Shown: positions 8,217 through 19,778, numbered from the stretch's first letter. The stretch is DNA of 33,984 nucleotides from a virus (IMGVR_UViG_3300042888_000057:1-33984); one strand, 5' to 3'. The notes: generated by a model not told the origin, from the sequence alone. Numbers and translations are program-made.

Positions 8217-8525
8217 TTAGCTGAATAGTCCAACCGCAACGACTGATACACCTGCGCCTGTGGTGACTTTCCAACCAGAAGTCAAAGAAGCCATGTTTAG
8301 CTCGATGTCAATCACGCCAACACCTGAAGCTACCAAAGCAGGAACGATAGCAATGTTTACTACGCCATCGGTTAGGGTAACGCCAGAGGTTGCTGCTGTG
8401 CTAACAGTAACGATGAGACGATGCAGATAGTCACCTGCTGCGCCAGAAGCGCCAAGCATTTGAAGTGATTGACCTGCTGCTACTGTTTCGTATTGGTATC
8501 CATAACCACGCTGTACACCGCTCAT
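8217..8525 (-). CDS. Hypothetical structural protein between terminase and portal
   Basis: A 102-aa protein of unknown function: MSGVQRGYGYQYETVAAGQS, then a mostly beta, Val/Ala/Gly-rich body ending GAGVSVVAVGLFS. The composition suggests a small all-beta virion component, for example a head-decoration or stabilising protein, but position alone supports this. Its start codon overlaps the terminase stop as ATGA. Confidence 0.6.
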   Translation of the reverse strand: MSGVQRGYGYQYETVAAGQSLQMLGASGAAGDYLHRLIVTVSTAATSGVTLTDGVVNIAIVPALVASGVGVIDIELNMASLTSGWKVTTGAGVSVVAVGLFS

Positions 8526-9859
8526 AATCGACTGCTCCTAAGTGTTTTGTGGGTTGCCCACATATCATTCAATGTAACTGTGTTTTCTGAGCCAACCATC
8601 AACGGTTTCACAACGTCTGGCGGCTTCACTTTGGGTTCTACACGCCAAACTACCGCCATCATTCTGAAAGCATCTGCTGGGTGTGATGTCCAGTCATGTC
8701 TTGGACTAGCCCTAAATGCTTTCTTATCTTCGTCGTATTCCCGCTGATACTGTCTCAGAGCTTCAAGTCCATCCGAGCATTTAGTCTTGTCGAACCAACA
8801 CATCGGAAGGCATTGCCGTACTGCTTGAATCCCATCTTGTACGCCCAAGTCAGGCACAATCGCCATGTTGTTTATACCAAGGTGTTCCGCTAATTGCTCG
8901 ATAACCGATTTGCCCTGCGCTGCCAAAGTTTTAGCTTTTGCATCGTGCGGAAGTTGGTGTTTTCCGTATTTATAGGGCTTTTCTTTGATTATTTTCGCAA
9001 TTTCATCAATATTAGCACCGGAAATGGCAAAAAAGTCGATTAAATGTATTTCATTTCGCACGACTTGATACCACCAGATTGCGGTGTCATCACGGTATCC
9101 TAAGTCCCATGCTGTGTGAACTGGTATCGCAGGATCATATGGTACGTCAGTGATGCGTCCCTCGTCCTCAGCTTGTCGCAGGTCTGTGCCGTAATAAGCA
9201 CCCAAGATAGACGCTTCAAATGAGCATTCGTACTCTTGCAAGAATTGATCTTCAGAGATTTGTGCTCTTGCAGCATTCAGTTCGGTCTGGGGCAATAAGC
9301 CTGATTCTGACGCTGTGAGCTTGAGACAGAACCATTCGCCATCGCTTCTGTTTGCTTGGTCATATATCTGCCAAAACTGGTTTTTGCCCTTTGGTGTGCC
9401 AGCAAACACTGCCCAACCCTGTTTGTCGGATAAGGTAGGGCGAATGACGTTACCCCAGACGCTAGGTCTAAAGTCACCGTACTCGTCCATAAATACGCCC
9501 GAGAAGCCTAACCCTCGCATTGCGTCAGCGTTGTCAGCACCAAATAGGCGTATCTTTGCACCCGTCACTAGCTCAACGGTCAATTCAGCTTCGTTTGATG
9601 ATTTAAGTACAGGCGCTGCAAAGTGCTTGAGGTAGTCCCAAGCGACAGACTTAGCCTGGCTTCTGTATGGTGCTATGTACGCATATAGCGGATAAGAGTC
9701 TTTACTCATCAGCGCAGCACGAACAATGTCGTTTATAGCTGCGACTGTTTTACCTGCCCTTCGATGAGCAACTAAGCAAGCCCAGCGTTGTGTGCGTGAG
9801 TGAAAGGGTTTAAACGCTTGCCGAGGCGAGTACGGTAAGACTACTTCTCGTCTTGCCAC
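8522..9859 (-). CDS. terL: Terminase large subunit
   Basis: A 445-aa DNA-packaging motor. The ATPase domain has the Walker A variant AHRRAGKT (residues 31-38), Walker B with catalytic acid VFMDEYGDF (122-130) and coupling motif FAGTPKGKNQFW (152-163). The nuclease domain carries WDLGYRDDTAIWW (first acidic residue about 252), PHDAKAK (about 304-310) and a C-terminal HDWTSHPADAFRMM with the last acidic residue. The length is typical. The protein works with the portal and small terminase to fill the head and cut DNA. Its start overlaps the small-terminase gene by 19 bases. No intein or break is visible. Confidence 0.93.
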   Translation of the reverse strand: MARREVVLPYSPRQAFKPFHSRTQRWACLVAHRRAGKTVAAINDIVRAALMSKDSYPLYAYIAPYRSQAKSVAWDYLKHFAAPVLKSSNEAELTVELVTGAKIRLFGADNADAMRGLGFSGVFMDEYGDFRPSVWGNVIRPTLSDKQGWAVFAGTPKGKNQFWQIYDQANRSDGEWFCLKLTASESGLLPQTELNAARAQISEDQFLQEYECSFEASILGAYYGTDLRQAEDEGRITDVPYDPAIPVHTAWDLGYRDDTAIWWYQVVRNEIHLIDFFAISGANIDEIAKIIKEKPYKYGKHQLPHDAKAKTLAAQGKSVIEQLAEHLGINNMAIVPDLGVQDGIQAVRQCLPMCWFDKTKCSDGLEALRQYQREYDEDKKAFRASPRHDWTSHPADAFRMMAVVWRVEPKVKPPDVVKPLMVGSENTVTLNDMWATHKTLRSSRL

Positions 9860-10146
9860 TTGACCACCAGCTCTATCGGGCCATTGTCTGCGCCAACGTG
9901 TTCTTGTCTTGCGAGCTTTGGCACATGGTACTCAGCGACAGCCATAAAGCAATCGAACGCTGTCTTTGGCCCGTATCGGTCATCCATAGCAATCTGCTCA
10001 AGCCACGATTGAAGCTGGTGGGCATTACCATCCACGAACTCAGCAATCGCCTCTCTCGCCTTCGCTGTTGACTTGTTAGGCGTACCCGCAATGCGTCCGC
10101 CTGCCTTCTTTCTAGTTTTGACTACAGTAGTTTCTGCCATATCCAT
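9841..10146 (-). CDS. terS: Terminase small subunit (probable)
   Basis: About 101 aa; starts are possible at TTG 10152, ATG 10146 and ATG 10140, and I chose the first ATG. The N-terminus is basic, with KTRKKAGGRIAGTPNKSTAKAREAIAEFVDG, the pattern of DNA-binding small terminases. The rest is helical (WLEQIA, DCFMAVAEYHVPKLAR). It lies directly upstream of the large subunit and overlaps it. It would recognise phage DNA for packaging. The promoter at 10178-10205 and the palindrome at 10165-10178 are immediately upstream, so this gene probably opens the late transcript. Confidence 0.75.
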   Translation of the reverse strand: MDMAETTVVKTRKKAGGRIAGTPNKSTAKAREAIAEFVDGNAHQLQSWLEQIAMDDRYGPKTAFDCFMAVAEYHVPKLARQEHVGADNGPIELVVKWQDEK

Positions 10147-10164
10147 ACTCAATTGTCTTAGAGA

Positions 10165-10178
10165 TTAAGATAGGTTAA
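10165..10178. promoter_or_regulatory. Operator O5, TTAAG-ATAG-GTTAA
   Basis: A 14-bp imperfect palindrome matching the other four sites with one change in the second half (C to G). It begins where the -10 box of the leftward promoter ends, thus covering the expected transcription start before the terminase genes. Binding there would block late transcription. Confidence 0.65.
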
Positions 10179-10205
10179 TTATATCTTACTTGTCTAGCTT
10201 ATCAA
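10178..10205 (-). promoter_or_regulatory. Leftward promoter before terminase (late promoter candidate)
   Basis: On the minus strand TTGATA (10205-10200) and TATAAT (10183-10178) are separated by 16 bases: a perfect -10 box and a 4/6 -35 box. It overlaps the 3' end of the 282-aa gene and faces the terminase genes. It is the best sigma-70-type promoter in the leftward path. Confidence 0.65.
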
Positions 10206-11034
10206 ATTCTTGTTGCAAAAGGTCTTTTCTAGTGGAATTATAATATTCTTGTTGAGTATTTGATAAAGGTTTGCCTGTTTTGAGCCTCTGCTCCATATTT
10301 TTTATCATTTTTGCTTTGCCAATTTCGTCGTATGATTTTTGAGCCAACATCATCTCGCTTGGCCCTTGTTTTCTCATATCTAATGCTAATTGCATAACTT
10401 GTTGCATTTCTTCAGGCGTTGCAACATTAAACACATTTGCCGAACCTTCCACACCTTTTGAATGTCCTGACATTCGTATGTTAGGTATAAAACCGCCAGT
10501 TTCAGGGTCATAAATACGCAAATAGCTTGATGGGCCTGCTTTGCTGCCGCTATGGTCAAGCGTAACTTGAAAACCTTGATCCTTGAGTTGTTGGGCAAAT
10601 TTTTCTGCGCTGTTTTGTATTAAATCAGCACCTTTATTTGGTAATCCTTCTGTTTTAAACAAACTCATTGATAAGTCTGTGCCACCCACGCCTGTCGGGT
10701 TAGTCAATGCTTTCCCAGTTGCAATGCCGCCGCCAAAGGTGTTTAGCGCCATGTTTGCGGCTTCTTCGCCTGGCTTAAACGTAGGGTCTGATCCCGTCAA
10801 AGCTCGTGCTGGTGAGGTAAACGCATTTAGCGCACCCGCAAGAATGCCAGGTAACGCCAATTCTCGTTTGTTGAATACCGACCCTTCCATCGTGTCACGG
10901 AAAGGGAGCAATGTTGCTCTGCCTTCCATTGGGAGCGCTTTTGAGTACCACGGCTGCTCACCCTGCATTGCGTTAAATTTGCGTAATTCTTGTTCTTCGC
11001 TTAGTAACGATGCTATTTGCTTTGGGTCAGCCAT
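10186..11034 (-). CDS. Hypothetical protein, ejection / polyvalent-protein-like
   Basis: A 282-aa protein without an identified enzyme motif. The segment GILAGALNAFTSPARALTGS (about 63-82) followed by FKPGEEAANMALNTFGGG resembles linker regions seen in large multidomain phage proteins that enter the cell with DNA. The middle (about 140-200) may be a compact alpha/beta domain (FAQQLKDQGFQVTLDHSGSK, SSYLRIYDPETGGF), and the C-terminus is a charged helix with repeated Lys and Gln. It precedes the terminase operon and its last codons contain the promoter described at 10178. A virion or toxin-like role is possible but unproven. Confidence 0.6.
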   Translation of the reverse strand: MADPKQIASLLSEEQELRKFNAMQGEQPWYSKALPMEGRATLLPFRDTMEGSVFNKRELALPGILAGALNAFTSPARALTGSDPTFKPGEEAANMALNTFGGGIATGKALTNPTGVGGTDLSMSLFKTEGLPNKGADLIQNSAEKFAQQLKDQGFQVTLDHSGSKAGPSSYLRIYDPETGGFIPNIRMSGHSKGVEGSANVFNVATPEEMQQVMQLALDMRKQGPSEMMLAQKSYDEIGKAKMIKNMEQRLKTGKPLSNTQQEYYNSTRKDLLQQEFDKLDK

Positions 11035-11041
11035 GTCTGAC

Positions 11042-11395
11042 CTATCGTCTACGCATCATTTCGTACTCTGCATTACTCATAGCGCCTTGACCCATGCCAC
11101 GGGCCATAGGCATTGGGACAGGTTTAGCACCCATTGCGCCTTGTTGTGGGATTGCTTGCCCAAACATTGTTGCTGGCGGTTGCGTAAATTGACCTTGTTG
11201 CATGGGTTGACCAGTCATCGGCACTGATTGCATACCGTAATCAGGTTGTGCTGCCATAGCTCGTTGAGCCATTTCCATGTCTGAGCCTGACATAGCGCCT
11301 GCACCTTGCATTGATTGGAGGAATTTCTGCATCTGTTGCTGTTGCAACATTTGAGCTATTTTTTGTGCTTCTGGGTTTTGTACGAGGTCATCCAT
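11042..11395 (-). CDS. Met/Gln-rich low-complexity protein
   Basis: A 117-aa protein made mostly of Met, Gln, Ala, Gly and Pro. The N-terminus is a Gln-rich helix (KIAQMLQQQQMQKFLQSMQG), the rest looks disordered (PMTGQPMQQGQFTQPPATM), and the end is MSNAEYEMMRRR. Proteins like this sit near internal virion proteins in several podoviruses and may be flexible virion or assembly components. No function can be assigned from the sequence. It lies between the DUF5856-like gene and the 282-aa gene. Confidence 0.6.
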   Translation of the reverse strand: MDDLVQNPEAQKIAQMLQQQQMQKFLQSMQGAGAMSGSDMEMAQRAMAAQPDYGMQSVPMTGQPMQQGQFTQPPATMFGQAIPQQGAMGAKPVPMPMARGMGQGAMSNAEYEMMRRR

Positions 11396-11403
11396 AGCCG
11401 TTC

Positions 11404-11760
11404 CTATTTGAGAAAGCGCAGTTTATACAGCGTTGAGTCGAGCAATTGGGCAATTTCATCAATTACGTTCTGAAGTTGCGTGTCTTTTGGTAGCTCTTTG
11501 CGGATTTCTTTAACAAAATCACACAGGCTTTTCAGGTATCGCTGTGGATTCTTAGCTAAATGGAAGTCATCCGGATAGGTTTTAATCTTGTCGTATGCAC
11601 CTTGATACGCTTCTGTAAAAGTATCTACGAGATCAGGAATGCTTTCATAATACTTTTGCAACGCTTTGTGTTCTGCGTAGCTTTCGGTCTGAAAGTGCAT
11701 AAAATGCGTGTTAGTTGCGCTATGTAACAGCGTCGATACAAATACGGCTGGATAGTCCAT
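11404..11760 (-). CDS. DUF5856-like helical protein
   Basis: A 118-aa, almost all-helical protein. The segment LLHSATNTHFMHFQTESYAEHKALQKYYE (residues about 11-39) with spaced His and Glu, then IPDLVDTFTEAYQGAYDK, is a pattern I recall from the phage DUF5856 family, which looks like a ferritin-type four-helix bundle. The biochemical role is not known to me; His/Glu spacing leaves metal binding open. It begins directly after the RusA stop (TAAATG). The family name is from memory and should be checked by profile search. Confidence 0.65.
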   Translation of the reverse strand: MDYPAVFVSTLLHSATNTHFMHFQTESYAEHKALQKYYESIPDLVDTFTEAYQGAYDKIKTYPDDFHLAKNPQRYLKSLCDFVKEIRKELPKDTQLQNVIDEIAQLLDSTLYKLRFLK

Positions 11761-12123
11761 TTACGCCTCGTTCTCAAAGGTGGCTAGGATTATTGTACAT
11801 TGTCCATTTGATTTAATCACGCCTCTTGTGATAGTGATTTCGTCAAATTGACTGTCATCGTCAAACACTCCTGCGTCTTGCAATGCGTCTAAAAGTGCTT
11901 TGATACGGTTATCTAGGTCAATTGCTCGTTTGTCCCTTGGGTATATCTTAATTATTGCTGCAAGTCTTTGGTTGCCAAGTTTCGGTAGGTTGTTCTGGGT
12001 GACGTATTCCTGAACCGCTTGTTTGTAGTCTCTGCCGCCTTTTGAGAGGATTGTGCGCCCCCTAAAGTTACGCCAATAGGTGTTGATGCTCGGCGGTAGG
12101 GGTAGCTGCATGGTAATTAACAT
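11761..12123 (-). CDS. rusA: RusA-like Holliday junction resolvase
   Basis: A 120-aa protein with the features of RusA endonucleases: the N-terminal LPLPPSINTYWRNFRGR (about 7-23), the central DKRAIDLDNRIKALLDAL with the essential Asp pair, and VFDDDSQFDEITITR. RusA dimers cut four-way junctions formed during replication and recombination. The length matches the family. It follows the PP-loop gene with TAAATG spacing. With ERF, SSB and the exonuclease on the other strand it makes a complete phage recombination set. Confidence 0.9.
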   Translation of the reverse strand: MLITMQLPLPPSINTYWRNFRGRTILSKGGRDYKQAVQEYVTQNNLPKLGNQRLAAIIKIYPRDKRAIDLDNRIKALLDALQDAGVFDDDSQFDEITITRGVIKSNGQCTIILATFENEA

Positions 12124-12978
12124 TTAATCTCCGCAGAAACAGGCAATGCCTTCTTCATCTGGGTCAAATATTGTTTTTTGGTCTGCCGCAAACTTAACCA
12201 TGCTTTCATAATTTGGACGGTCTTTGCGAAAAGTCGCACCGCTTGGCTTGGATGCCAATGCCAATGCCAATGCCTCCATTTTAACCCACCAGACCGCTCT
12301 TTCGGGTTTTTCTGCTATTAGTGTTGCGACCTGATTGGCTGGTTTTAAAAAACACAAATCGCAATTTCCTGCCAAAGTTCTGCCTTTGTATGTTGGCAAT
12401 TCAAGATTAAATGGTTGGTTTTCCCAAAATTTACCAATGTCTTGAACGCTTACTTTAGCTGTAAACAATGGAATTCTGCGTTTATCAGTTATTTTTGCTG
12501 CTCTGCGTCCTTCGTCAAACCTTAACCCTATCCACGATGCGTTCTCAAGTTCAGATTTAGTGCAATCGTCAAATAAACCAGAGTGTTTTAAAAAACACGC
12601 CATTGTGCGTATTTTTAGCTCGCTTGTGCAAAATCTTGTTACTGGGTTTGGCAAATACTGACGCTTGCGGATAATTGCCTCAAATGGCTCACCGTTACGA
12701 GCTGCTGTTTCGTAAGTAACTTCTTTGTACCTATTTTCCGGCAATTCATGGTCTTGGTACTCAATCCAATGTATTTTGACACCCCAATTCACAGAACAAT
12801 CATTTACAAACTTGAGCGTTGCTTCTTCCTCTTTGCCTGTGTTGGCAAAACATACTATTGCTTGGTTAGGCAATTGCCCCCCCCCAGCTTCTAAGACTTT
12901 CTTTAACATATATGCAGATGTTCTGCCACCGCTAAAACTTATGCAAGTAGGTTCTGTAATTTCGTATGGGTTTAGCAT
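12124..12978 (-). CDS. PAPS-reductase-like PP-loop protein
   Basis: A 284-aa protein of the adenine-nucleotide alpha-hydrolase / PAPS reductase superfamily. Residues 14-24 give ISFSGGRTSAY, the SGGxTS PP-loop that binds ATP or PAPS phosphate; IVCFANTGKEEEATLKFV (about 41-58) is the second strand. Cys residues occur as CDLCFLKP (about 205-212) and near the end as ACFCGD, so an Fe-S cluster or thiol chemistry is possible. Relatives include CysH and DndC. Many phages carry a member of unknown role; here it is two genes from a glycosyltransferase. A run of nine G on the coding strand (12885-12877) encodes part of EAGGGQ. The start overlaps the YbcO-like gene's stop. Confidence 0.8.
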   Translation of the reverse strand: MLNPYEITEPTCISFSGGRTSAYMLKKVLEAGGGQLPNQAIVCFANTGKEEEATLKFVNDCSVNWGVKIHWIEYQDHELPENRYKEVTYETAARNGEPFEAIIRKRQYLPNPVTRFCTSELKIRTMACFLKHSGLFDDCTKSELENASWIGLRFDEGRRAAKITDKRRIPLFTAKVSVQDIGKFWENQPFNLELPTYKGRTLAGNCDLCFLKPANQVATLIAEKPERAVWWVKMEALALALASKPSGATFRKDRPNYESMVKFAADQKTIFDPDEEGIACFCGD

Positions 12979-13271
12979 TGAATCAATCCACGCTCAAATA
13001 ACTCGCCAATTGTCTTTCTATGCGCTAGTTCCCAAAGTTCGACACGCATTACTCTGTTTAAGTCTTTGCCTTGGTCTATCTCGCTATGACACTTAAAACA
13101 TAAGCTGGCTATGCGGTAATCGCTTGCTTTGAGTCCTCTGCCCTTACCGTCACGAAGTTGGTTACTGTGCGCTGCAACAACTGTACCGTCCTCTGCACCG
13201 CAAAGTTGACAGGGTATTTCTCTACAAGCGACTAAAAGTTTGGGGTTTCTGTACATTTTGATTCTGCCCAT
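12972..13271 (-). CDS. YbcO-like (DUF1364) putative nuclease
   Basis: A 99-aa protein with CQLCGAEDGTVVAAHSNQLR, then GKGRGLKASDYRIASLCFKC and HSEID. The arrangement of paired Cys, AHxN, GxGxKAxD, CxxCHxxID is that of YbcO-type proteins of lambdoid prophages, related to HNH (beta-beta-alpha metal) nucleases and thought to act in recombination. All expected Cys/His residues are present. Starts are possible at 13271 (MGRIKMYR) or 13256 (MYRNPK); neither has an ideal Shine-Dalgarno. It overlaps the 58-aa gene by 40 bases and the PP-loop gene by seven. Confidence 0.8.
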   Translation of the reverse strand: MGRIKMYRNPKLLVACREIPCQLCGAEDGTVVAAHSNQLRDGKGRGLKASDYRIASLCFKCHSEIDQGKDLNRVMRVELWELAHRKTIGELFERGLIQC

Positions 13272-13408
13272 TCCTGTAAATGGCGAGCCATAAATTGCAT
13301 TTCTACAGCAGCGTTTGCCGCTAATTCATAATTTTGTTTATGCAGCAGTTTACGGTATTGCAAAATCAGGGCTGTAAGTTTTATCATTGATTCGCTGTAA
13401 TCAATCAT
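13232..13408 (-). CDS. 58-aa helical hypothetical protein
   Basis: A short gene supported by coupling: its ATG overlaps the stop of the 107-aa gene as ATGA. The protein starts MIDYSESMIKLTALILQYRK and continues as one predicted amphipathic helix to WAESKCTETPNF. No motif is recognised. It overlaps the YbcO-like start by 40 bases, which makes translation of both from one transcript possible but leaves some doubt. Confidence 0.55.
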   Translation of the reverse strand: MIDYSESMIKLTALILQYRKLLHKQNYELAANAAVEMQFMARHLQEWAESKCTETPNF

Positions 13409-13728
13409 TTTGTCATCCTCTCAAGGTTGCGGTTGCTTGCTTGCTCGGTTCTCCATGCGTCAAAGCGCATTTTTGCACTTTCTAGCCGCCAGCGCAGTAA
13501 TTCTGCCTGTTCTGTTGCTTCCCCAATAGCTTTGCACAGGTTCTGATAGTCTGGGTGTGCGTATGCTTCACGTTCCTGAGCACCAATAGCCGTTTCGTAG
13601 CTTTGCTTCATTAGGATGGCTTTTAGGCTAGATTTGTAGGTCTCCAACTCTGCCAATTTGCCCTTTGCGGCGGCAAACTCAGGCGCTGTTTTGTAGATAT
13701 AGTCGATTGCGTCGTGTTGGTCTTTCAT
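13405..13728 (-). CDS. Conserved phage helical protein
   Basis: A 107-aa all-helical protein. The phrase SSLKAILMKQSYETAIGAQE followed by REAYAHPDY and RWRLESAKMRFDAWRTEQ is one I recall from conserved small proteins near phage replication and recombination genes; I do not know a demonstrated function. The pattern suggests an antiparallel coiled coil. Its start overlaps the glycosyltransferase stop (ATGA) and its stop overlaps the 58-aa start. Confidence 0.75.
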   Translation of the reverse strand: MKDQHDAIDYIYKTAPEFAAAKGKLAELETYKSSLKAILMKQSYETAIGAQEREAYAHPDYQNLCKAIGEATEQAELLRWRLESAKMRFDAWRTEQASNRNLERMTK

Positions 13729-14561
13729 TTTTCTACCTTTTTTAATTTCATCCCGTATTCGTTAATTCCTTCCGGTATTACTAACCCTTCTTTGCGCTTT
13801 AAAACATTGCGTTTAAACACACTGTAGTCAACTTGATGATGCCATCTACCATAGCGCCGCACTACGCTTGCCATGTCGGGATGGTAATCAACCAACATTT
13901 GCGACTTTTCTAAGTTTTTCTCACCGTTCTCGTAAATTTCTTCCGTGTTGCCGCCTTTAATTGTCAATGTTGCTGCCTTGTTTTGTAGAAAACATCTAAA
14001 CATGATGGTGCAATAACCATCTTTTAGCGCCCTCAACGACAAATCTGCATCTTCGTTGTATTTCAATCGCCAGCGATACGGAATGTCGTTTCTAATCAAT
14101 ATGCAAGAAAAAATCCTAGTATTGGTTATAAATGCTGCTTTTTTACGCCTGTTGCCGCCTGCAAAAAACCTGTATTCAAACCCTGCTTGTGCAACATTTT
14201 CGTATCTGTTTACAAAATCTTCGGACGCTTTAAAGATTGACCCTGAAGTAACTGGTATGCGCTCGTTTCTGTTTAGTCTTACAAATCCGTCTATGTTGTC
14301 ATCCAGTATCCAATGAAATTTTGCACCATTTTCTATTGAATGCTCCCAACAAAAGTTACGAGCTGGGTACGAGCCTAAGCCATGATTGCTAAACGGTAAT
14401 ATAAGTATTTTGCTTGGGTCAATCACACTGGCGTATTTGTCGTACTCTTGCGGTTCAACAGCAATTTTGTATGGAACGCCCATCTTTTCAAGCGCTTTAC
14501 TCGTTAAGCGACTTTCCCACCTTCCTTTGGAAATTATATAAATTGGGTAATCAGGATTCAT
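13725..14561 (-). CDS. TET-associated-type glycosyltransferase (TAGT-like)
   Basis: A 278-aa protein that begins PDYPIYIISKGRWESRLTSK, then VPYKIAVEPQEYDKYASVID, SYPARNFCWEHS and FHWILDDNIDGFVRLNR. The WILDDN motif is the metal/sugar-nucleotide-binding acidic motif of GT-A-fold enzymes (compare DxD). YNEDADLSLRALKDGY (about 187-202) is a second conserved acidic region. This fits the TAGT family described by comparative genomics as adding sugars to hydroxymethylated bases in phage DNA. No TET/JBP dioxygenase or hydroxymethylase is visible here, so the acceptor is unknown. The gene overlaps its neighbours on both sides. Confidence 0.75.
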   Translation of the reverse strand: MNPDYPIYIISKGRWESRLTSKALEKMGVPYKIAVEPQEYDKYASVIDPSKILILPFSNHGLGSYPARNFCWEHSIENGAKFHWILDDNIDGFVRLNRNERIPVTSGSIFKASEDFVNRYENVAQAGFEYRFFAGGNRRKKAAFITNTRIFSCILIRNDIPYRWRLKYNEDADLSLRALKDGYCTIMFRCFLQNKAATLTIKGGNTEEIYENGEKNLEKSQMLVDYHPDMASVVRRYGRWHHQVDYSVFKRNVLKRKEGLVIPEGINEYGMKLKKVEK

Positions 14562-14787
14562 CTACCCAAACCTTTTTTTCTACGTTTGTTTTAACTGGAA
14601 AAACAAGGCTTTTTGTTGTGAACTTAATGTTGCGTCCCACAAGCTCTGAAAACTTGTTCATGTCCTCAACAGTCTCAAATCCAACCATTACATGATGAAT
14701 TAGCTTTAAATCATCTTGTATAAATTCTGGCATCCCACCCCATTCTTTTTGCCAGTCAAATTCTTCTTCTCCAAACAAATCTTTCAT
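14551..14787 (-). CDS. Small acidic protein with W-GGMPEF and TKS-FP motifs
   Basis: A 78-aa protein reading FDWQKEWGGMPEFIQDDLKL, then IHHVMVGFETVEDMNKFSEL and IKFTTKSLVFPVK. I remember the pattern 'W-x-G-M-P-E-F ... F-x-x-x-x-D-x-x-x-F-x-x-L-x-G-x-x-I-x-x-x-T-K-S-x-x-F-P' from small phage proteins or domains that travel with ParB-like, PAPS-reductase-like and DNA-modification genes. Its role is unknown. It is coupled to the loader-like gene by ATGA upstream and overlaps the TAGT gene by 11 bases downstream, strengthening a functional link with it. Confidence 0.7.
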   Translation of the reverse strand: MKDLFGEEEFDWQKEWGGMPEFIQDDLKLIHHVMVGFETVEDMNKFSELVGRNIKFTTKSLVFPVKTNVEKKVWVDES

Positions 14788-15158
14788 GCTGCCTCCGCTA
14801 CTTTTTTAGCAATCCTAGCCCTGAACTGTCCCATATCTTCGCCCGGTCTGGGTTGCATATCTAACTCCCTCGCTTTGTCCATCGTCATCTGCTCCGTCGA
14901 ATACCACGGCAATGCAGGTTTTTTAGGCTGCTTGGGCTGCATATCCAGTTCGTCGTAATACCTGCCTTGATTAAGCCAAGTAGCAGGGTGTGGAATGTAA
15001 TCAGTCGCTGTCTCTTTAATCTTCCAATACTCACAATGCGTCTCTAGTGCGTCAATCGCAAGTTCCTGCTCATCTATAGGGAGTCTGCCAAAAGATTGCA
15101 TAGCGGTCTTTTTAGCGACTTTGCGAGGGTATTTAGACCAGAATTCGTCAAAGCTCAT
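14784..15158 (-). CDS. Replication-protein / helicase-loader-like C-terminal domain
   Basis: A 124-aa protein that starts SFDEFWSKYPRKVAKKTAMQ and contains ATDYIPHPATWLNQGRYYDE (about 52-71). The FWxxYPRK...A...IPHPATWLNxxRWxxE pattern is usually the C-terminal part of phage replisome organisers (lambda O / DnaT / helicase-loader-like proteins). Here it stands alone, without the N-terminal winged-helix part; a separate winged-helix gene lies about 500 bp upstream in the same operon. It may help recruit host helicase, since no phage helicase, primase or polymerase is visible. Coupled by ATGA at both ends. Confidence 0.7.
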   Translation of the reverse strand: MSFDEFWSKYPRKVAKKTAMQSFGRLPIDEQELAIDALETHCEYWKIKETATDYIPHPATWLNQGRYYDELDMQPKQPKKPALPWYSTEQMTMDKARELDMQPRPGEDMGQFRARIAKKVAEAA

Positions 15159-15331
15159 TTGTTCTTCTCTTTTAATTTGGCTTCTATATCACGAGCTACA
15201 CCGCTGCCGCTTAGGCGTTTGTCATACAGTGCAATCTCCTCATCAGTCAGCCCAACCCATTCTTTTTGTGCCTCTTGCCGCCACATTCTGGCGCTTTCCT
15301 TGTGGTGCTCGCATTGTGGGCAGTTGCTCAT
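15155..15331 (-). CDS. 58-aa protein with CPxC and WVGLTDEEI
   Basis: A small gene too short for many callers, supported by ATGA overlaps with both neighbours. The protein starts MSNCPQCEHHKESARMWRQE and continues WVGLTDEEIALYDKRLSG, ending in a basic Lys-rich tail. The single CPQCEHH cluster could bind zinc. The W-x-x-L-T-D-E-E-I phrase is common in tiny phage proteins of unknown function. Confidence 0.65.
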   Translation of the reverse strand: MSNCPQCEHHKESARMWRQEAQKEWVGLTDEEIALYDKRLSGSGVARDIEAKLKEKNK

Positions 15332-15549
15332 TCTCGCCCCCCGTTCATAGCACGATCAACCTGCTCGTTTAAATCACGCTCGCTAACCATAAACAACTGG
15401 TGAGTTGATCTATTCAACCAGCGGTAGCGGTCAGCGTCCTCTTTCAACGCTCGGATGATGTCAGCGACCTGTCCCATCTCCTCTCTGGTCATAAAATCAC
15501 CTTTGTCCAGTATCCTAATTAACTGTTCGTAATCTCGTAAATCTCTCAT
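15328..15549 (-). CDS. 73-aa phage protein with DADRYRWLN motif
   Basis: A 73-aa helical protein with DFMTREEMGQVADIIRALKE followed by DADRYRWLNRSTHQLF. The 'E-D-A-x-R-Y-R-W-L' motif is frequent in small early phage proteins; no role is known to me. It overlaps the 48-aa zinc-ribbon gene at its start and the 58-aa CPxC gene at its end, both as ATGA. Confidence 0.7.
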   Translation of the reverse strand: MRDLRDYEQLIRILDKGDFMTREEMGQVADIIRALKEDADRYRWLNRSTHQLFMVSERDLNEQVDRAMNGGRE

Positions 15550-15692
15550 TTGTGCGCCTTATAAAATTTGTTGCACCACTCGCATAACCCGTCTATTAGC
15601 GTTGAAACTTGTCCACAACAATCACAAACAGGTTCAACAGGGTGTTGCTCTTTCTGGAGTTTGTCCCTAATCCACTCGACTAATGTTTTCAT
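15546..15692 (-). CDS. 48-aa zinc-ribbon-like protein
   Basis: A short open frame: MKTLVEWIRDKLQKEQHP, then VCDCCGQVSTLIDGLCEWCN, ending KFYKAHK. Two CxxC-type pairs (CDCC and CEWC) 14-17 residues apart form a plausible zinc ribbon. The ATG lies 26 bases inside the winged-helix gene and the stop overlaps the next start as ATGA, so it fits the operon's coupling pattern. It may be a small DNA- or protein-binding factor. Confidence 0.65.
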   Translation of the reverse strand: MKTLVEWIRDKLQKEQHPVEPVCDCCGQVSTLIDGLCEWCNKFYKAHK

Positions 15693-15993
15693 ACTTGTTG
15701 TTTGCCCAGTAAAGTTGACCAAATATACCTTCGTGTTGATTTGCTAGTTTTAATGCTTGCTCAGTTGCATTCTTGTTCTTTAGTGGATACCTGTACACCC
15801 GAATGTAGCGACCACCATTATTTGCTTTTGTGTCCCTGATTCCTCTGTCAATGTCAAAAAACGCTTTTGTCTTTAAAGCTGTACGAATGTGGTTGTGCGC
15901 TATTCCAGTGATTTCAGCTATCTCTGTTGCGCTTAACCAATCGTTCTGTTTAATCGCTGTCAAAATCCGTTGTTGCGTGTTTGTCAGTGCCAT
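15667..15993 (-). CDS. Winged-helix DNA-binding protein
   Basis: A 108-aa protein from the ATG at 15993, chosen because AGGAGA lies four bases upstream; an open frame extends to 16035 but would run through the operator. Residues 1-60 form a helix-turn-helix: LTNTQQRILTAIKQNDWLSA, TEIAEITGIAHNHIRTALKT, then a wing-like YIRVYRYPLK. The rest is a short helical tail. It opens the leftward early operon and could be a regulator or the DNA-binding half of a replication initiator whose loader half is at 14784-15158. Confidence 0.75.
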   Translation of the reverse strand: MALTNTQQRILTAIKQNDWLSATEIAEITGIAHNHIRTALKTKAFFDIDRGIRDTKANNGGRYIRVYRYPLKNKNATEQALKLANQHEGIFGQLYWANNKYENISRVD

Positions 15994-16009
15994 ATCGTCT
16001 CCTATAAAG

Positions 16010-16023
16010 TTAAGATAGCTTAA
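16010..16023. promoter_or_regulatory. Operator O1, TTAAG-ATAG-CTTAA
   Basis: A 14-bp site with perfect 5-bp inverted arms. It lies 17 bp before the winged-helix start, between an A/T-run region and the AGGAGA ribosome binding site. On the minus strand TTGAAT stands near a -35 position, but no convincing -10 box is seen. It is the best match to the shared motif and probably governs the leftward early operon. Confidence 0.72.
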
Positions 16024-16408
16024 TACTGTATTCAAAAAAAAGCAAATTTTTTGTTGTTTTTTTATAAAACATATTCTTTAGACAATAGTACCCCTACCCT
16101 TATACCCACCCACCTGCAACTGAGGGTAGATATAAATCCTTTACGACAGAACTCTGCTTGTTAGCTTACGGAGAGTCATTCCGCCCACCCCCAAATCCCG
16201 TTAATCAGCGTTCATATTAACGATAGGTGCATTTCAGCACTACTCGGCGTATTGGTAATAGTTGGTTTCCCAACTCTGTCTATATACCTTTCCCTTTCGG
16301 TACTTGGTCGTGCGGGTCACACGGGAAGCACTTTGCTAGTCATTATTATCAGTTTTCTTCCACGCCGCCCTGACAGGCTCTTGCTTTCGTATGGAGTACG
16401 GGAGCAAT

Positions 16409-16495
16409 AAAAAAACCGATTTAGTCAATGCCCCTCTGGAACGCAGCTTTTTTAAGGCTGAACCCCTTGCGGGGCGGGACATTGAATAAATCGGT
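16409..16495 (-). terminator. Large stem-loop with T-run downstream of repressor
   Basis: Arms 16415-16423 and 16487-16495 pair over 9 bp, followed after one mismatch by six more pairs (16425-16430/16480-16485) and three G-C pairs. On the minus strand the stem is followed by seven T (16415-16409), the form of an intrinsic terminator for the repressor transcript. The loop holds two further hairpins, which is much more than a terminator needs. Confidence 0.6.
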
Positions 16496-16515
16496 CTTAT
16501 CTCATCGGCGTTCCA
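16437..16515. ncRNA. Candidate pseudoknotted structured RNA element
   Basis: TGGAACGC at 16437-16444, inside the large stem-loop, is perfectly complementary to GCGTTCCA at 16508-16515, outside it. The second segment itself sits in the loop of a small hairpin (16505-16508/16519-16522). An 8-bp loop-loop contact crossing a stem is the geometry of a pseudoknot. Strand is uncertain: GNRA loops and the T-run favour minus, while the G-T pairs in the 16381-16407 hairpin favour plus. No known RNA family is recognised. Confidence 0.4.
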
Positions 16516-16554
16516 ATTCCGACAATACGACTTAATTATCTACTAATTTTTAAC

Positions 16555-16776
16555 CTAATGCAACTCAGGCCAGATTTGTTTCCAATTTTCAGGGAAAATA
16601 TCTTTCCGGTGTATCACCCCTTGCGACAGTCGCTCAAGTTCGGCAGCCATAAATATCAGCTTGTCTGGCGGGATTCCGTTGTTCTTCCACTGGCTAACGG
16701 CTGGCACACTAACCCCGCACAACTTTGCAACCTTAGTTGTGCCCCCTAGAATCGTGATGATTTTGCTGTTATCCAT
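16555..16776 (-). CDS. Cro/C1-like repressor
   Basis: A 73-aa DNA-binding protein: IITILGGTTKVAKLCGVSVP, then AVSQWKNNGIPPDKLIFMAA, ending in a short acidic/aromatic tail (FPENWKQIWPELH). The helix-turn-helix 'TKVAKLCGVSVPAVSQWKNNG' with I-P-P-x-x-x-x-x-L is typical of Cro/YdaS-type regulators. It diverges from the ERF operon in the layout of a lambdoid switch. It is probably the protein that binds the TTAAG-WTAG-CTTAA sites, one of which abuts its own start codon. There is no Shine-Dalgarno and TAAGAT lies 7-12 bases before the ATG, so the message may be leaderless. No larger CI-type protein with a cleavage domain is present. Confidence 0.8.
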   Translation of the reverse strand: MDNSKIITILGGTTKVAKLCGVSVPAVSQWKNNGIPPDKLIFMAAELERLSQGVIHRKDIFPENWKQIWPELH

Positions 16777-16789
16777 GAAGCTATCTTAA
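16776..16789. promoter_or_regulatory. Operator O2 at the repressor start codon
   Basis: On the minus strand the site reads TTAAG-ATAG-CTTCA, with one mismatch in the second half, and runs into the ATG. TAAGAT within it could be the -10 box for a leaderless transcript. This would give direct self-repression. Confidence 0.62.
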
Positions 16790-16827
16790 CTTACCAAATC
16801 AAGGGTGCAGAAAAATTTATTGATAAC

Positions 16828-16856
16828 TTGCACAATTAGTTTAGATAGCTTAATAT
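16828..16856 (+). promoter_or_regulatory. Main rightward early promoter
   Basis: TTGCAC (16828-16833) and TAATAT (16851-16856) with a 17-bp spacer. Transcription would start near 16863, leaving a leader of about 38 bases before the ERF start at 16901. It also shows that the open frame upstream of 16901 is not part of the ERF gene. Operator O3 overlaps the spacer and -10 box. Confidence 0.68.
16840..16853. promoter_or_regulatory. Operator O3, TTTAG-ATAG-CTTAA
   Basis: Matches the shared motif with one change in the first arm. It overlaps the -10 box and spacer of the rightward promoter, a position where a bound repressor would exclude RNA polymerase. Confidence 0.68.
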
Positions 16857-16900
16857 CTATCTCACTGGCACACCCGCCAGGACAACATATAGGTGCAAAA

Positions 16901-17470
16901 ATGAACGAACTAGCAAAATCTCTAGTAAAAGCTCAAGCTGCTATGAACCACGCAGCGAAAGATAGTAAAAATCCCCACTTTAAATCTGCGTACTCTAGCT
17001 TGGCTAGTGTGATTGACGCTGTGCGACCTGCGCTGTCTGGCAACGGATTGGCGTTTGTGCAAAAGCTGCATACCGCTGACGGTGGCGTAGCAGTCGAAAC
17101 CGTACTTATCCACGAGTCAGGTGAGCAACTGTCTTGCGGTACGTTGTTTATCCCTGCGTCAAAACAAGACGCTCAGGGTTTCGGTTCAGCGCTTTCGTAT
17201 GCAAAAAGATACAGTTTGCAATCTGCGCTTGGTATCGCTTCGGCTGACGATGATGGTGAAGCTGCTGTTAAATCGCCGCCTAAGCCTCCAGTTGCTGTGA
17301 CTATAGATATGGACTTCGCAGTAGACGAAATGGCGGCACAGACCGATTTAGAGACTTTAAAGGCGTGTTTTGCAAAATGGTACAAGTCTGCGCCTGATAG
17401 CCAGAAAGAAGTGCTTAAAGCTATGTATGACGGTATCAAAGTTCAACTTGTTTCAAAAGGTGCAAAATAA
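16901..17470 (+). CDS. erf: ERF-family single-strand annealing protein
   Basis: A 189-aa recombinase. The frame is open from 16805 but the ATG at 16901 is the likely start: it follows AGGTGCAAAA and lies downstream of the promoter. The sequence KDSKNPHFKSAYSSLASVID (residues about 20-39) and DAQGFGSALSYAKRYSLQSA, then SADDDGEAA, are hallmark ERF motifs. ERF rings coat single strands and pair complementary DNA, working here with SSB, the exonuclease and RusA. The C-terminal part after about 125 is a variable linker and helical domain. Overlap of the last base with the SSB start suggests coupling. Confidence 0.88.
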   Translation: MNELAKSLVKAQAAMNHAAKDSKNPHFKSAYSSLASVIDAVRPALSGNGLAFVQKLHTADGGVAVETVLIHESGEQLSCGTLFIPASKQDAQGFGSALSYAKRYSLQSALGIASADDDGEAAVKSPPKPPVAVTIDMDFAVDEMAAQTDLETLKACFAKWYKSAPDSQKEVLKAMYDGIKVQLVSKGAK

Positions 17471-17886
17471 TGTCAAATGACCTTAATCGTTGTGAATTTA
17501 TTGGCAGGCTTGGGCGTGATCCAGAAGTGCGGTTTTCCGCCTCTGGTGAGGCCATTGCAAACTTCTCAATTGCTTGTGGATGGAAGTCAAAAGAAAAAGA
17601 ATCAGTCGAGTGGATTCGTATTGTTGCGTTTGGCAAGCTCGCTGGCGTTTGTGGTGACTATCTACGCAAGGGTTCGCAGGTGTACATCTCTGGGCGTATG
17701 ACCACTCGAAAATGGCAAAACAAGGACGGTGTTGAGCAATTCTCTACTGAAGTCGTTGCTGATCAAATGCAAATGCTAGGCGGTAAACCAGAGCAATCTG
17801 CGCCGCCAATATCGCAAAAGCAAGACGCATATCGCAACATTAAAGAGGGCAATATCGCTGACCTCGAAGATGATGTGCCATTCTGA
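17470..17886 (+). CDS. ssb: Single-stranded DNA-binding protein
   Basis: A 138-aa SSB. The OB fold covers about residues 5-110, with FIGRLGRDPEVRFSASGEAI, then EWIRIVAFGKLAGVCGDYLR and KGSQVYISGRMTTRKWQNKD. The C-terminus ends DLEDDVPF, the acidic tip with terminal Pro-Phe by which SSBs recruit repair and replication partners. It protects single strands made by the exonuclease and feeds them to ERF. The start follows AGGTGCAAAATA directly. Confidence 0.93.
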   Translation: MSNDLNRCEFIGRLGRDPEVRFSASGEAIANFSIACGWKSKEKESVEWIRIVAFGKLAGVCGDYLRKGSQVYISGRMTTRKWQNKDGVEQFSTEVVADQMQMLGGKPEQSAPPISQKQDAYRNIKEGNIADLEDDVPF

Positions 17887-18029
17887 TGAACAAAACTGAA
17901 GAAGCAATCCTAATATCTTGGCGGCTTCAACAGTGGCATGAGGGCATGGTCTTGGATAACAGGGCCATGCAAGACCTTCAGGATGCCATTGAGATGCTTA
18001 AAACATTAGCTAAACAGGTGCAAAAATGA
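17886..18029 (+). CDS. 47-aa hypothetical protein between SSB and exonuclease
   Basis: A small gene: the ATG overlaps the SSB stop (TGATG) and its stop overlaps the nuclease start (ATGA). The protein starts MNKTEEAILISWRLQQWHEG and is predicted to form two helices (NRAMQDLQDAIEMLKTLAKQ). No motif is recognised. The perfect coupling on both sides supports translation; a partner protein for SSB or the exonuclease is conceivable. Confidence 0.65.
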   Translation: MNKTEEAILISWRLQQWHEGMVLDNRAMQDLQDAIEMLKTLAKQVQK

Positions 18030-18763
18030 TTATTAAAACAGCAGATTCTGAGTCAGGCCACTGGTACGCAGCAGACGGATCACCAGCTTATCGCATCATT
18101 GGCAAAAACGGTGCAGAGCGCAATACACGCCTGACAGACGCTCGTGAACTTGGGCTAGTCCCGTCAGTTACGACTATTTCAGGTCTCCTCGCCAAGCCTG
18201 GTCTTAATTCGTGGTTACAGCAACAGGTTTTGCTTGCTGCGCTGACTTTGCCCAGAACGGAGGGTGAGTCAGAAGAAAACTGGCTTCAGCGGGTTATGTC
18301 GGACGCTCGATCAACAGGACGGGAAGCAGCAGACCGTGGCACTCGCTTGCATGGGGTTTTGGAAGATTTCTACCGTGGCAAAAATTACGATTTTCCTGAG
18401 TTTGTCACAAGAGTGCATACTGCGCTCGAATCCCACTTTGGCGCTAACCACACTTGGGAAGCTGAACGCAGTTTTGCGTCCAATGGCTACGGTGGCAAAG
18501 TTGACTTGATCTCAGCCAACATCGTGGTGGACTTTAAGAGCAAAGAAGGTGACTTGAGCAAGGTTACCCCTTACCACGAGCAAATAATGCAACTGGCGGC
18601 TTATAGGCAAGGATTAGGGCTACCCACAGCACGATGCGCCAATGTCTATTTCACAGAATCCGGTGATGTGCGACTGATTGAGCATTCAGAGCAAGATTTG
18701 GCTGACGCTTGGGAATGTTTCCAGTATCTTTTGGCTTTCTACCGAAAGAAGAACAACATATAA
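18026..18763 (+). CDS. PD-(D/E)XK exonuclease
   Basis: A 245-aa nuclease of the Cas4/RecB-like superfamily. Motifs in order: SVTTISGLLAKPGLNSWLQQ (about 50-69), GREAADRGTRLHGVLEDFYR (about 99-118), the catalytic GGKVDLISANIVVDFKSKEG (about 154-173; Asp of the motif and the D-x-K strand) and HEQIMQLAAYRQG. This is the usual partner of single-strand annealing proteins: it resects double-strand ends so ERF can load. The ATG is preceded by AGGTGCAAAA. Confidence 0.85.
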   Translation: MIIKTADSESGHWYAADGSPAYRIIGKNGAERNTRLTDARELGLVPSVTTISGLLAKPGLNSWLQQQVLLAALTLPRTEGESEENWLQRVMSDARSTGREAADRGTRLHGVLEDFYRGKNYDFPEFVTRVHTALESHFGANHTWEAERSFASNGYGGKVDLISANIVVDFKSKEGDLSKVTPYHEQIMQLAAYRQGLGLPTARCANVYFTESGDVRLIEHSEQDLADAWECFQYLLAFYRKKNNI

Positions 18764-18864
18764 TCAAATGGCGGGGAACGCTGGTGTCCCTCCTCCTAGT
18801 TCCGGTTAGTACCCGCACCCCAACAAAAATACAACACTTAAGGGTAAACACCTATAAATATTGC

Positions 18865-18893
18865 TTGTTTGTGTTGTTAAGTTAGCTTAATAT
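18865..18893 (+). promoter_or_regulatory. Second rightward promoter
   Basis: TTGTTT (18865-18870) and TAATAT (18888-18893) with a 17-bp spacer. The same -10 sequence and the same overlap with an operator appear at 16851. It would start transcripts near 18900, before the 62-aa gene. The stretch 18764-18864 before it holds no gene I can support. Confidence 0.6.
18877..18890. promoter_or_regulatory. Operator O4, TTAAG-TTAG-CTTAA
   Basis: Both 5-bp arms are perfect; the spacer differs by one base from O1. The position relative to the -10 box matches that of O3 to within one base, strong support for shared control. Confidence 0.7.
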
Positions 18894-18933
18894 TTGTTCA
18901 TGGCAATAACGCCATAACTTTATCGGAGGCCAC

Positions 18934-19122
18934 ATGGCTGACTTTACTTTCCTAGCTTCAGACTTTAACGCTACAGAAATTACTGTGGTTGCCAATAGTC
19001 AGTATGCCAAACAGTATTTGGCTGAACGCTACGGAGTTGGCTGTGTTTCTTTGAATGTTCGTAAATCAGCAGCTCCAGAATTTGCTGATAGCTTTGAATT
19101 TCAAGGTTTGTCTTACAACTAA
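18934..19122 (+). CDS. 62-aa hypothetical early protein
   Basis: The protein starts MADFTFLASDFNATEITVVA and ends FADSFEFQGLSYN. It is a compact alpha/beta sequence with no catalytic motif. GGAGG lies five bases before the ATG, the strongest ribosome binding site of the rightward arm, and an operator-controlled promoter stands just upstream, so it is likely made strongly on derepression. Function unknown; a host-takeover or regulatory role is only a guess. Confidence 0.7.
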   Translation: MADFTFLASDFNATEITVVANSQYAKQYLAERYGVGCVSLNVRKSAAPEFADSFEFQGLSYN

Positions 19123-19125
19123 AAC

Positions 19126-19141
19126 TGGGGCGCAAGCCCCA
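19126..19141 (+). other. GNRA-capped hairpin between early genes
   Basis: TGGGGC and GCCCCA pair perfectly around a GCAA tetraloop directly after the 62-aa gene stop. There is no T-run, so it is not a normal terminator; mRNA stabilisation or partial attenuation is possible. Confidence 0.6.
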
Positions 19142-19159
19142 TTACATACAGGTGCATAA

Positions 19160-19393
19160 ATGAATGATGAAGAACGCTTCAACATATACACACAAGACGC
19201 TAACGATGTGATGGATGTGATCCAGTTCAGCGGGATTGACAAAGACGGTCTGCATTGGCTTGACTGGTACAAACGCATCCAGTCCGGTGACGCTCTGTAC
19301 AACATCACGATGAAACTTGTACGCAATCGCAAAGACCCGAAGTACGCAGAGTTAATTGAAGAACTTGAGGCAGAAATTGGGGGATGGTTATGA
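19160..19393 (+). CDS. 77-aa hypothetical acidic protein
   Basis: An acidic protein: NDEERFNIYTQDANDVMDVI, then GLHWLDWYKRIQSGDALYNI and an acidic helix IEELEAEIGGWL. No motif is recognised. The ATG follows AGGTGCATAA, the same initiation box as ERF and the exonuclease, which supports the start. The stop overlaps the next ATG at 19390. Confidence 0.65.
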   Translation: MNDEERFNIYTQDANDVMDVIQFSGIDKDGLHWLDWYKRIQSGDALYNITMKLVRNRKDPKYAELIEELEAEIGGWL

Positions 19394-19581
19394 GCAACTG
19401 GGGCAAACACGCAGATTATTCGCATCCGAACTGGACTTTAAGGACACCACGACAAATGAAAAGGTACTCACGTTATACCAATGCAGACCAACGCATTCCG
19501 CTTGACGGCTGGGTGCTTGGCGCACTTGTGCTGTTTGTTATTTTTGGTTTCTTGCCACTGTTAAACTGGATACTAAAATGA
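19390..19581 (+). CDS. 63-aa membrane protein
   Basis: The frame is open from 19384 but the second ATG (19390) overlaps the previous stop as ATGA and has the better GGGGG spacing. The N-terminal half is basic and hydrophilic (HPNWTLRTPRQMKRYSRYTN); residues about 41-62 are one transmembrane segment (WVLGALVLFVIFGFLPLLNW). Orientation would be N-in by the positive-inside rule. The role is unknown; small early membrane proteins can alter host physiology or block superinfection. Confidence 0.65.
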   Translation: MSNWGKHADYSHPNWTLRTPRQMKRYSRYTNADQRIPLDGWVLGALVLFVIFGFLPLLNWILK

Positions 19582-19778
19582 GCAAAATCGACGCTGTGTA
19601 CTTGCATCTTAAAACCCGCAAACACATTACTTCATGGGAAGCAATTAACCTGTATCGTGCAACACGATTAGCCGATATTGTGTACAAACTTAAAAATCAG
19701 GGTTTTGACATTCAAACCGTTATGGTTGAAGGTGAAAACACCCGTTTTGCACGTTATTTTTTAAAGGGTACAAAATGA
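19578..19778 (+). CDS. Helix-turn-helix protein (HTH_39-like)
   Basis: A 66-aa protein: KIDAVYLHLKTRKHITSWEA, then INLYRATRLADIVYKLKNQG and FDIQTVMVEGENTRFARYFL. The order 'hIT-SWEAI-x-L-Y-x-x-T-R-L-x-x-x-I-x-x-L' with a C-terminal beta wing matches a small winged-helix family of phages and prophages (HTH_39), some of which act as regulators. It is a second DNA-binding candidate in the rightward arm and overlaps neighbours on both sides as ATGA. Confidence 0.75.
   Translation: MSKIDAVYLHLKTRKHITSWEAINLYRATRLADIVYKLKNQGFDIQTVMVEGENTRFARYFLKGTK

What the first reader, a model, noticed from the sequence alone, without database searches (positions are those of the whole stretch)
10165..18890. 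Five-site operator network covering early, late and repressor promoters
A 14-bp imperfect palindrome TTAAG-WTAG-CTTAA occurs at 10165, 16010, 16776 (minus), 16840 and 18877, each with at most one mismatch in the arms. I see it at the upstream boundary of five transcription units and did not notice it inside genes. At 16840 and 18877 it overlaps a TAATAT -10 box in the same register. The Cro-like 73-aa protein is the likely binder. It is unusual that the late terminase promoter carries the same site: one tiny repressor would hold both early and late genes. With no integrase visible, this could support a carrier or plasmid-like state rather than integrated lysogeny.
Basis: partly seen in the sequence, partly recalled or inferred. 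Interest (0 to 1): 0.82.

Follow-up and report, generated by a model that had tools for sequence, protein, structure and literature searches.

The report
Five-promoter repressor regulon in phage
A small freshwater virus of bacteria appears to control all its main gene blocks, including DNA packaging, with a single tiny Cro-type repressor that binds five near-identical DNA sites, a simple circuit preserved in many relatives but built from a familiar kind of switch.

Summary
Exactly five sites match TTAAGWTAGCTTAA with at most one mismatch, at the stated positions (0.03 expected in shuffles). All five lie outside genes. In 15 related phage records that carry the same 73-aa regulator, the sites recur at the same places: on the regulator's own start codon, at the divergent Erf/SSB/nuclease promoter, at the promoter after the nuclease gene, at the leftward replication-gene promoter, and before the terminase genes (10 of 12 testable records). 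All 48 strong sites avoid homologues of window genes. Six relatives with the same capsid but no such regulator lack the sites. Every site overlaps a predicted sigma70 promoter between about -23 and +7, a repressing position. The 73-aa protein is P22-Cro/YdaS-like, and P22's own OR and OL contain exact TTAAG-N4-CTTAA sites. So the most likely account is one autorepressed Cro-type protein holding early, replication and late promoters. The window's ends overlap, so the genome is essentially complete; it has no tyrosine or serine recombinase and no ParA/ParB match. Whether the circuit supports a carrier state or only times lytic growth cannot be told from sequence. Verdict: a real, conserved new variant of known Cro/operator systems.

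The parts
16555..16776 (-). 73-aa Cro/YdaS-type regulator ('Reg')
   Evidence: Pfam YdaS_toxin 3.8e-10 and P22_Cro 4.2e-10, both over cut-off; PHROG transcriptional repressor; predicted fold nearest to Xfaso 1 Cro, CP-933P YdaS, N15 Cro, P22 Cro
16776..16789 (-). Operator on Reg's own promoter/start codon (TTAAGATAGCTTCA); -10-like TAAGAT 16783-16788, 6 nt before ATG, so probably a leaderless message
   Evidence: same position in every relative
16840..16853 (+). Operator in the PR-like promoter of Erf-SSB-nuclease (TTTAGATAGCTTAA), in spacer and first half of -10
   Evidence: geometry
16828..16856 (+). PR-like promoter TTGCAC-17-TAATAT (TTGACA-17-TAATAT in many relatives)
18877..18890 (+). Operator in the promoter of the small-gene unit after the nuclease gene (TTAAGTTAGCTTAA)
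18865..18893 (+). Promoter TTGTTT-17-TAATAT of the 18934-19927 unit
16010..16023 (-). Operator in the PL-like promoter of the leftward wHTH / O-like / RusA unit (exact match)
16017..16045 (-). PL-like promoter TTGCTT-17-TAAGCT, -10 inside the operator arm
10165..10178 (-). Operator at the terminase (late) promoter (TTAACCTATCTTAA on the transcribed strand), about -7 to +7
   Evidence: conserved in 10 of 12 testable records
10178..10205 (-). Terminase promoter TTGATA-16-TATAAT (11 of 12 consensus bases, best in the 10-kb region)
   Evidence: its -35 lies in the 3' end of the upstream gene and is not conserved in all relatives
9841..10152 (-). Probable small terminase subunit, first gene of the late unit (by position; only a PHROG of unknown function matched)
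   Evidence: syntenic homologues in relatives
8522..9859 (-). Large terminase subunit
   Evidence: Pfam Terminase_6N 2.6e-8
16898..17470 (+). Erf-type single-strand annealing protein
   Evidence: Pfam ERF 4.9e-27
17470..17886 (+). Single-strand binding protein
   Evidence: Pfam SSB 6.5e-32
18026..18763 (+). PD-(D/E)XK-type exonuclease
   Evidence: PHROG exonuclease 6e-11; Pfam PDDEXK_1 below cut-off
15667..15993 (-). Winged-helix protein, first gene of the leftward unit (rival binder considered and disfavoured)
   Evidence: weak HTH matches; homologue in only 4 of the 15 relatives that carry Reg
14784..15158 (-). Replication-initiation (O-like, C-terminal part) protein in the leftward unit
   Evidence: PHROG replication initiation protein 2.6e-17
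16408..16495 (-). Terminator-like hairpin with T tract after Reg, separating it from the PL-like unit
   Evidence: sequence and fold; not listed by the consensus terminator scan, whose loop limit it exceeds

Best explanation
The 73-aa Cro/YdaS-type protein Reg binds, presumably as a dimer, to five copies of a P22-Cro-like operator (core TTAAG-N4-CTTAA). Each operator overlaps the -10 or start region of a sigma70-type promoter, so binding blocks RNA polymerase. One protein thereby represses its own leaderless gene, the divergent recombination unit (Erf, SSB, nuclease), a small-gene unit after it, the leftward replication unit, and the late unit that begins with terminase. Reg's own operator is on average the weakest match of the five classes and the terminase operator the next weakest, so Reg should rise until the early promoters are shut before it limits itself. 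Shown here: the sites, their conservation, their position on predicted promoters, and the co-occurrence of Reg with the sites. Inferred: binding, repression, leaderless translation, order of affinity.
For: Five sites, none elsewhere. In 15 relatives with Reg, 72 sites score at least 12 against 10.6 for permuted palindromic controls; in six capsid relatives without Reg, 1 against 3.4. The operator centre lies 6 bp from Reg's start in every record, and the site is present in about 25 further Reg fragments. Of 48 strong sites, none lies inside homologues of window genes, which cover 63% of the sequence. Promoter geometry is conserved by class: TTG-17-TAATAT at PR and at 18877, -10 in the left arm at PL and Reg, TATAAT-like box ending on the operator at terminase. 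Reg is P22_Cro/YdaS by Pfam, 35% identical to P22 Cro over 55 aa with the same AVSQWK helix; the top PDB folds are Cro proteins and YdaS. P22 OR and OL hold exact TTAAG-N4-CTTAA sites. Two relatives without the sites carry a different small Cro-like protein at the corresponding locus.
Against: No binding or transcription data exist. The terminase site is degenerate in G003 and not seen in G020, and that promoter's -35 is poor in several relatives. Arms-only statistics in the window alone are modest. PWM ranking is not affinity. PR-to-Reg site spacing varies from 36 to 92 bp without helical phasing, so cooperative binding is not supported.
Confidence: 0.82

Rival explanations
1. Lytic-only role: Reg acts like Cro in a virulent phage. 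All promoters fire on entry; Reg then shuts early and replication promoters, while the weaker terminase operator lets late genes run longer. No persistent state exists. (This refines the purpose of the best explanation rather than excluding it.)
For: No Phage_integrase, resolvase or ParA match in window or relatives; no copy with host flanks found in genome contigs, the hits being phage-only MAG contigs where checked; P26218, the nearest named phage by terminase, is described as lytic. Terminase and Reg operators are the weakest classes.
Against: The late promoter looks like a strong sigma70 promoter, so it would be on at entry, and pure Cro timing would switch late genes down rather than up. 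Reg sits in the place of a CI repressor (divergent from PR, apparently leaderless).
Confidence: 0.5
2. Immunity role: Reg is a CI-like master repressor that silences early and late genes so that the phage persists as an episome or carrier, like P1 C1. (This too refines the purpose of the best explanation.)
For: One repressor covers all main promoters; the autoregulated site is the weakest, which keeps Reg high enough to shut the rest; relatives carry alternative Cro-like proteins without these sites, as heteroimmune phages do. P1 is a plasmid prophage with 22 dispersed C1 operators (PMC8546580).
Against: No partition or plasmid-maintenance gene found in the window; a ParB_N match exists only in G020. 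Reg has no C-terminal dimerisation or cleavage domain, so induction is unexplained. No plasmid record of this phage found by its regulator.
Confidence: 0.35
3. Another protein binds the sites, for example the winged-helix protein at 15667-15993 or a host factor, and Reg is incidental.
For: A second DNA-binding protein is encoded next to an exact site.
Against: Its homologue is detected in only 4 of the 15 Reg relatives, while Reg is always present with the sites. The motif matches operators of P22, whose Cro resembles Reg. Every Reg gene carries the site on its own start.
Confidence: 0.07
4. The repeats are merely shared promoter sequence (the TTAATAT -10 region) with no operator function.
For: All five overlap a predicted -10 box.
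Against: The palindrome takes three different registers relative to the -10, and both arms are conserved where only one could serve the promoter.
Confidence: 0.04

Closest known systems
Salmonella phage P22 Cro (and C2) with OR/OL operators
   Same: Homologous Cro domain with the same AVSQWK recognition helix; exact TTAAG-N4-CTTAA cores in OR and OL
   Different: P22 clusters three operators at each of OR and OL and has a separate C2 repressor; here single operators are spread over five promoters, one is at terminase, and no C2-like repressor was found
YdaS of prophage CP-933P (E. coli O157:H7) with PaaR2
   Same: Same Pfam family; YdaS is a Cro-like repressor of the divergent promoters and PL; the partner repressor gene is leaderless (PMC8630535)
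   Different: CP-933P half-site is GTTTAGTAA; two repressors share the operators; no late-gene operator appears in the passages read
Bacteriophage P1 C1 repressor with 22 dispersed operators
   Same: One repressor acting at many separate lytic promoters in a phage that persists without integration (PMC8546580)
   Different: C1 operators are asymmetric 17-mers; late genes are held indirectly through Lpa; P1 has plasmid replication and co-regulators (Coi, Lxc); Reg is not shown to be a C1 relative
Cluster A mycobacteriophage (L5) repressor and stoperators
   Same: Repressor sites dispersed through the genome; some members are extrachromosomal (PMC6550527)
   Different: 20-30 asymmetric, orientation-dependent sites, mostly away from promoters and blocking elongation; here about five palindromes, each on a promoter

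Membership tests
Cro/YdaS-type phage repressor family (PF14549 P22_Cro, PF15943 YdaS) | Sequence match above the curated cut-off | tested here: met
   39.7 and 39.9 bits against cut-offs 30.2 and 30
Cro/YdaS-type phage repressor family (PF14549 P22_Cro, PF15943 YdaS) | Small all-helical HTH fold like solved Cro/YdaS proteins | tested here: met
   pLDDT 82; top PDB matches are Xfaso 1 Cro, YdaS, N15 Cro, P22 Cro, prob 0.97-1.0 but no E-value below 0.001
Cro/YdaS-type phage repressor family (PF14549 P22_Cro, PF15943 YdaS) | Palindromic operators on its own and the divergent promoter | tested here: met
Cro/YdaS-type phage repressor family (PF14549 P22_Cro, PF15943 YdaS) | Binds the operators and represses | not testable with these tools
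   needs EMSA, footprinting and reporter assays
Lambdoid two-repressor switch (CI/C2 plus Cro) | Divergent CI-type repressor with C-terminal dimerisation/peptidase domain | tested here: not met
   The gene divergent from the early promoter is Reg itself, 73 aa; no CI-type protein among the window proteins scanned (not every ORF was scanned)
Lambdoid two-repressor switch (CI/C2 plus Cro) | Clustered multi-site OR/OL | tested here: not met
   single sites per promoter, apart from the two facing sites between Reg and Erf
P1-like dispersed operator immunity | One repressor with operators at many separate promoters | tested here: met
   five promoters, conserved
P1-like dispersed operator immunity | Plasmid maintenance functions (ParA/ParB) | tested here: not met
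   no AAA_31 in 13 records; ParB_N only in G020
L5-type stoperator system | Many asymmetric sites, mostly not at promoters | tested here: not met
   five palindromes, all at promoters
Integrating temperate phage | Tyrosine or serine integrase | tested here: not met
   PF00589 in 0 of 19 records, PF00239 in 0 of 13; window ends overlap, so the genome is essentially complete

The most novel reading that the evidence does not exclude
A stripped-down, integration-free immunity system: a single autorepressed 73-aa Cro-type protein directly silences early, replication and late (terminase) promoters of a widespread small freshwater phage group, allowing a non-integrated carrier state without a CI repressor or partition genes.
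Probability: 0.25. Interest if true: 0.68.

Novelty: new variant of a known kind. Interest (0 to 1): 0.48.

Why it matters
Phages without an integrase are usually called virulent. A conserved operator set that places both early and terminase promoters under one Cro-type repressor says that this common phage group, known almost wholly from metagenomes, has lysogeny-style control without the usual lysogeny genes. It gives a testable regulon: five sites, one 73-aa protein, and relatives with swapped regulators. It also extends the P22-type operator code to a wide environmental family.

Tried and rejected
Unbiased palindrome search over whole genomes with a simple composition background gave composition artefacts; a first intergenic version timed out; the repeat put TTAAG-N4 first in the window but not beyond the shuffled maximum, so I do not rest the case on it. 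Rfam found no known RNA and ARAGORN no tRNA. I first checked only for exact end repeats and found none; allowing mismatches showed the 135-bp overlap. A Comamonas 'plasmid' with a weak Reg-like match looked like a plasmid form, but it is a different prophage with its own S24 repressor, ParB and integrase. Foldability of the noncoding stretch after Reg is not exceptional (z -1.36). Strict cooperative looping was rejected because the spacing between the Reg and Erf operators varies without phase. I could not identify the operators of the Reg-less relatives.

Full report
Observation. The five sites are real: 10165, 16010, 16776 (minus), 16840 and 18877 are the only places in the window within one mismatch of TTAAGWTAGCTTAA, where 0.03 would be expected. 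Because the pattern was drawn from the sites, I also tested the arms alone (5 found, mean 1.39, reached in 1 of 100 shuffles) and an unbiased list of all intergenic palindromes (TTAAG-N4 ranks first, but shuffled sequence sometimes does as well). Within one genome the case is therefore good but not overwhelming; relatives decide it.

The genome. The window is a virus record. Its two ends overlap by 135 bases, 132 identical, so it is a complete or nearly complete circularly permuted genome of about 33.85 kb. Late genes (terminase 8522-9859, portal 5921-8206, capsid 32940-33941) all run on the minus strand. The plus strand carries Erf, SSB and a nuclease and then small genes up to 19927. A leftward minus unit from about 16010 carries a winged-helix protein, an O-like replication protein, a glycosyltransferase and RusA. 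The 73-aa regulator Reg (16555-16776, minus) lies between the two early units.

Conservation. A search with Reg gave 40 loci and one with the capsid 80. I took 21 related records, joined from overlapping pieces, mapped window genes on them and scanned with a symmetric matrix made from the five window sites. In 15 relatives with Reg, 72 sites score at least 12 against 10.6 for permuted palindromic controls. In six relatives with an 88-90% identical capsid but no such Reg, 1 against 3.4. Sites recur in the same five places. The centre of one site is 6 bp from Reg's start codon in every record, and more Reg fragments show it too. The terminase site is present in 10 of 12 testable records, including the window, often in the same variant TTAACCTATCTTAA; it is degenerate in G003 and was not seen in G020. 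None of the 48 sites scoring at least 15 lies in homologues of window genes, which cover 63% of that sequence.

Promoter geometry. At the Erf promoter and the 18877 promoter the operator fills the spacer and the first half of TAATAT, with a -35 hexamer 17 bp upstream; in many relatives the Erf promoter is TTGACA-17-TAATAT. At the leftward promoter and at Reg the -10-like box (TAAGCT, TAAGAT) is the left arm of the operator. At Reg the box is followed after 6 nt by ATG, which predicts a leaderless message, as reported for lambda cI and for paaR2 (PMC8630535). At terminase a TATAAT-like box ends on the first base of the operator; in the window TTGATA-16-TATAAT is the best promoter match in the 10-kb region scanned. 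Thus all five operators lie between about -23 and +7, where binding should block polymerase. Three different registers argue against the repeats being promoter sequence alone.

The binder. Reg matches P22_Cro and YdaS in Pfam, aligns with P22 Cro (35% over 55 aa, shared AVSQWK), and its predicted fold is nearest to Cro proteins and YdaS (probabilities near 1 but no E-value below 0.001). P22's OR and OL contain exact TTAAG-N4-CTTAA cores, an independent match between protein family and operator. The winged-helix protein, the other candidate, is detected in only 4 of the 15 Reg relatives. Reg-less relatives G028 and G030 have a different small Cro-like protein (recognition helix RAAVHNWK or RAAVNNWK) at the corresponding place and no TTAAG sites. 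Binding itself was not tested.

How it works. Reg most likely represses all five promoters and itself. Scoring each class with a matrix built from the other classes gives PL 20.7, 18877-type 20.3, PR 16.8, terminase 14.9, Reg 13.1 on average. If score tracks affinity, which is an assumption, Reg rises until the early promoters are shut before it limits its own synthesis. Spacing between the Reg and Erf operators (36-92 bp) has no helical phase, so sites probably act singly. A terminator-like hairpin after Reg (16408-16495) separates its message from the leftward unit.

Lifestyle. No tyrosine recombinase in 19 records, no serine recombinase and no ParA in 13; a ParB_N domain only in G020. Genome-collection hits to the capsid are metagenome-assembled contigs; those checked show phage genes without recognisable host flanks. 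The closest named phage by terminase, P26218 (45% identity), was described as lytic. The circuit suits either an immunity repressor or a Cro-type brake, and the sequence does not decide.

Place among known systems. In function it is like a P22/YdaS-type Cro acting over dispersed single operators in the manner of P1 C1 (22 operators, PMC8546580). It is unlike L5 stoperators, which are many, asymmetric and mostly away from promoters (PMC6550527). I file it as a new variant of a known kind: a single Cro-type regulator that directly covers the terminase promoter as well as the early ones. I found no paper describing this arrangement in the searches made, but the library lacks most subscription journals.

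Noticed in passing
16865-16880 and 18903-18918 (+), approximate; equivalents in relatives: A small hairpin sits at the very 5' end of the messages from the Erf and 18877 promoters: 15 of 15 and 12 of 14 relatives have a stem of at least 5 bp (3.7 and 2.4 expected in shuffles), with compensatory changes such as CTGGC/GCCAG, CTGAC/GTCAG, TAGGC/GCCTA, ATGGC/GCCAT, ATCGC/GCGAT. It is not enriched at the leftward promoter; perhaps it stabilises the message.
   Followed up: partly
1-135 and 33850-33984: Window ends overlap (132 of 135 identical), so the record is an essentially complete, circularly permuted genome.
   Followed up: yes
16036-16411: About 375 nt of noncoding DNA between the terminator after Reg and the leftward promoter; parts of the larger noncoding stretch 16036-16554 are 67-77% conserved in nine relatives, but its fold is not exceptional (z -1.36). 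Origin or small RNA possible.
   Followed up: partly
L176 (MW202520), L177 (MW202674): The early module (Reg, Erf, SSB, with nuclease, winged-helix and O-like genes in L177) with its operators occurs in phages without a detectable homologue of the window's capsid and with only about 33% identical terminase; no strong operator lies before their terminase.
   Followed up: partly
G028:8681-8794, G030:6094-6201: Relatives with a 90% identical capsid carry a different, shorter Cro-like protein with an apparently leaderless start; their operators were not identified.
   Followed up: partly
13725-14561 (-): TET-associated glycosyltransferase (TAGT, 4.7e-42), hinting at modified phage DNA.
   Followed up: no
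G020:26186-26419: One relative encodes a ParB_N-domain protein of 383 aa.
   Followed up: no
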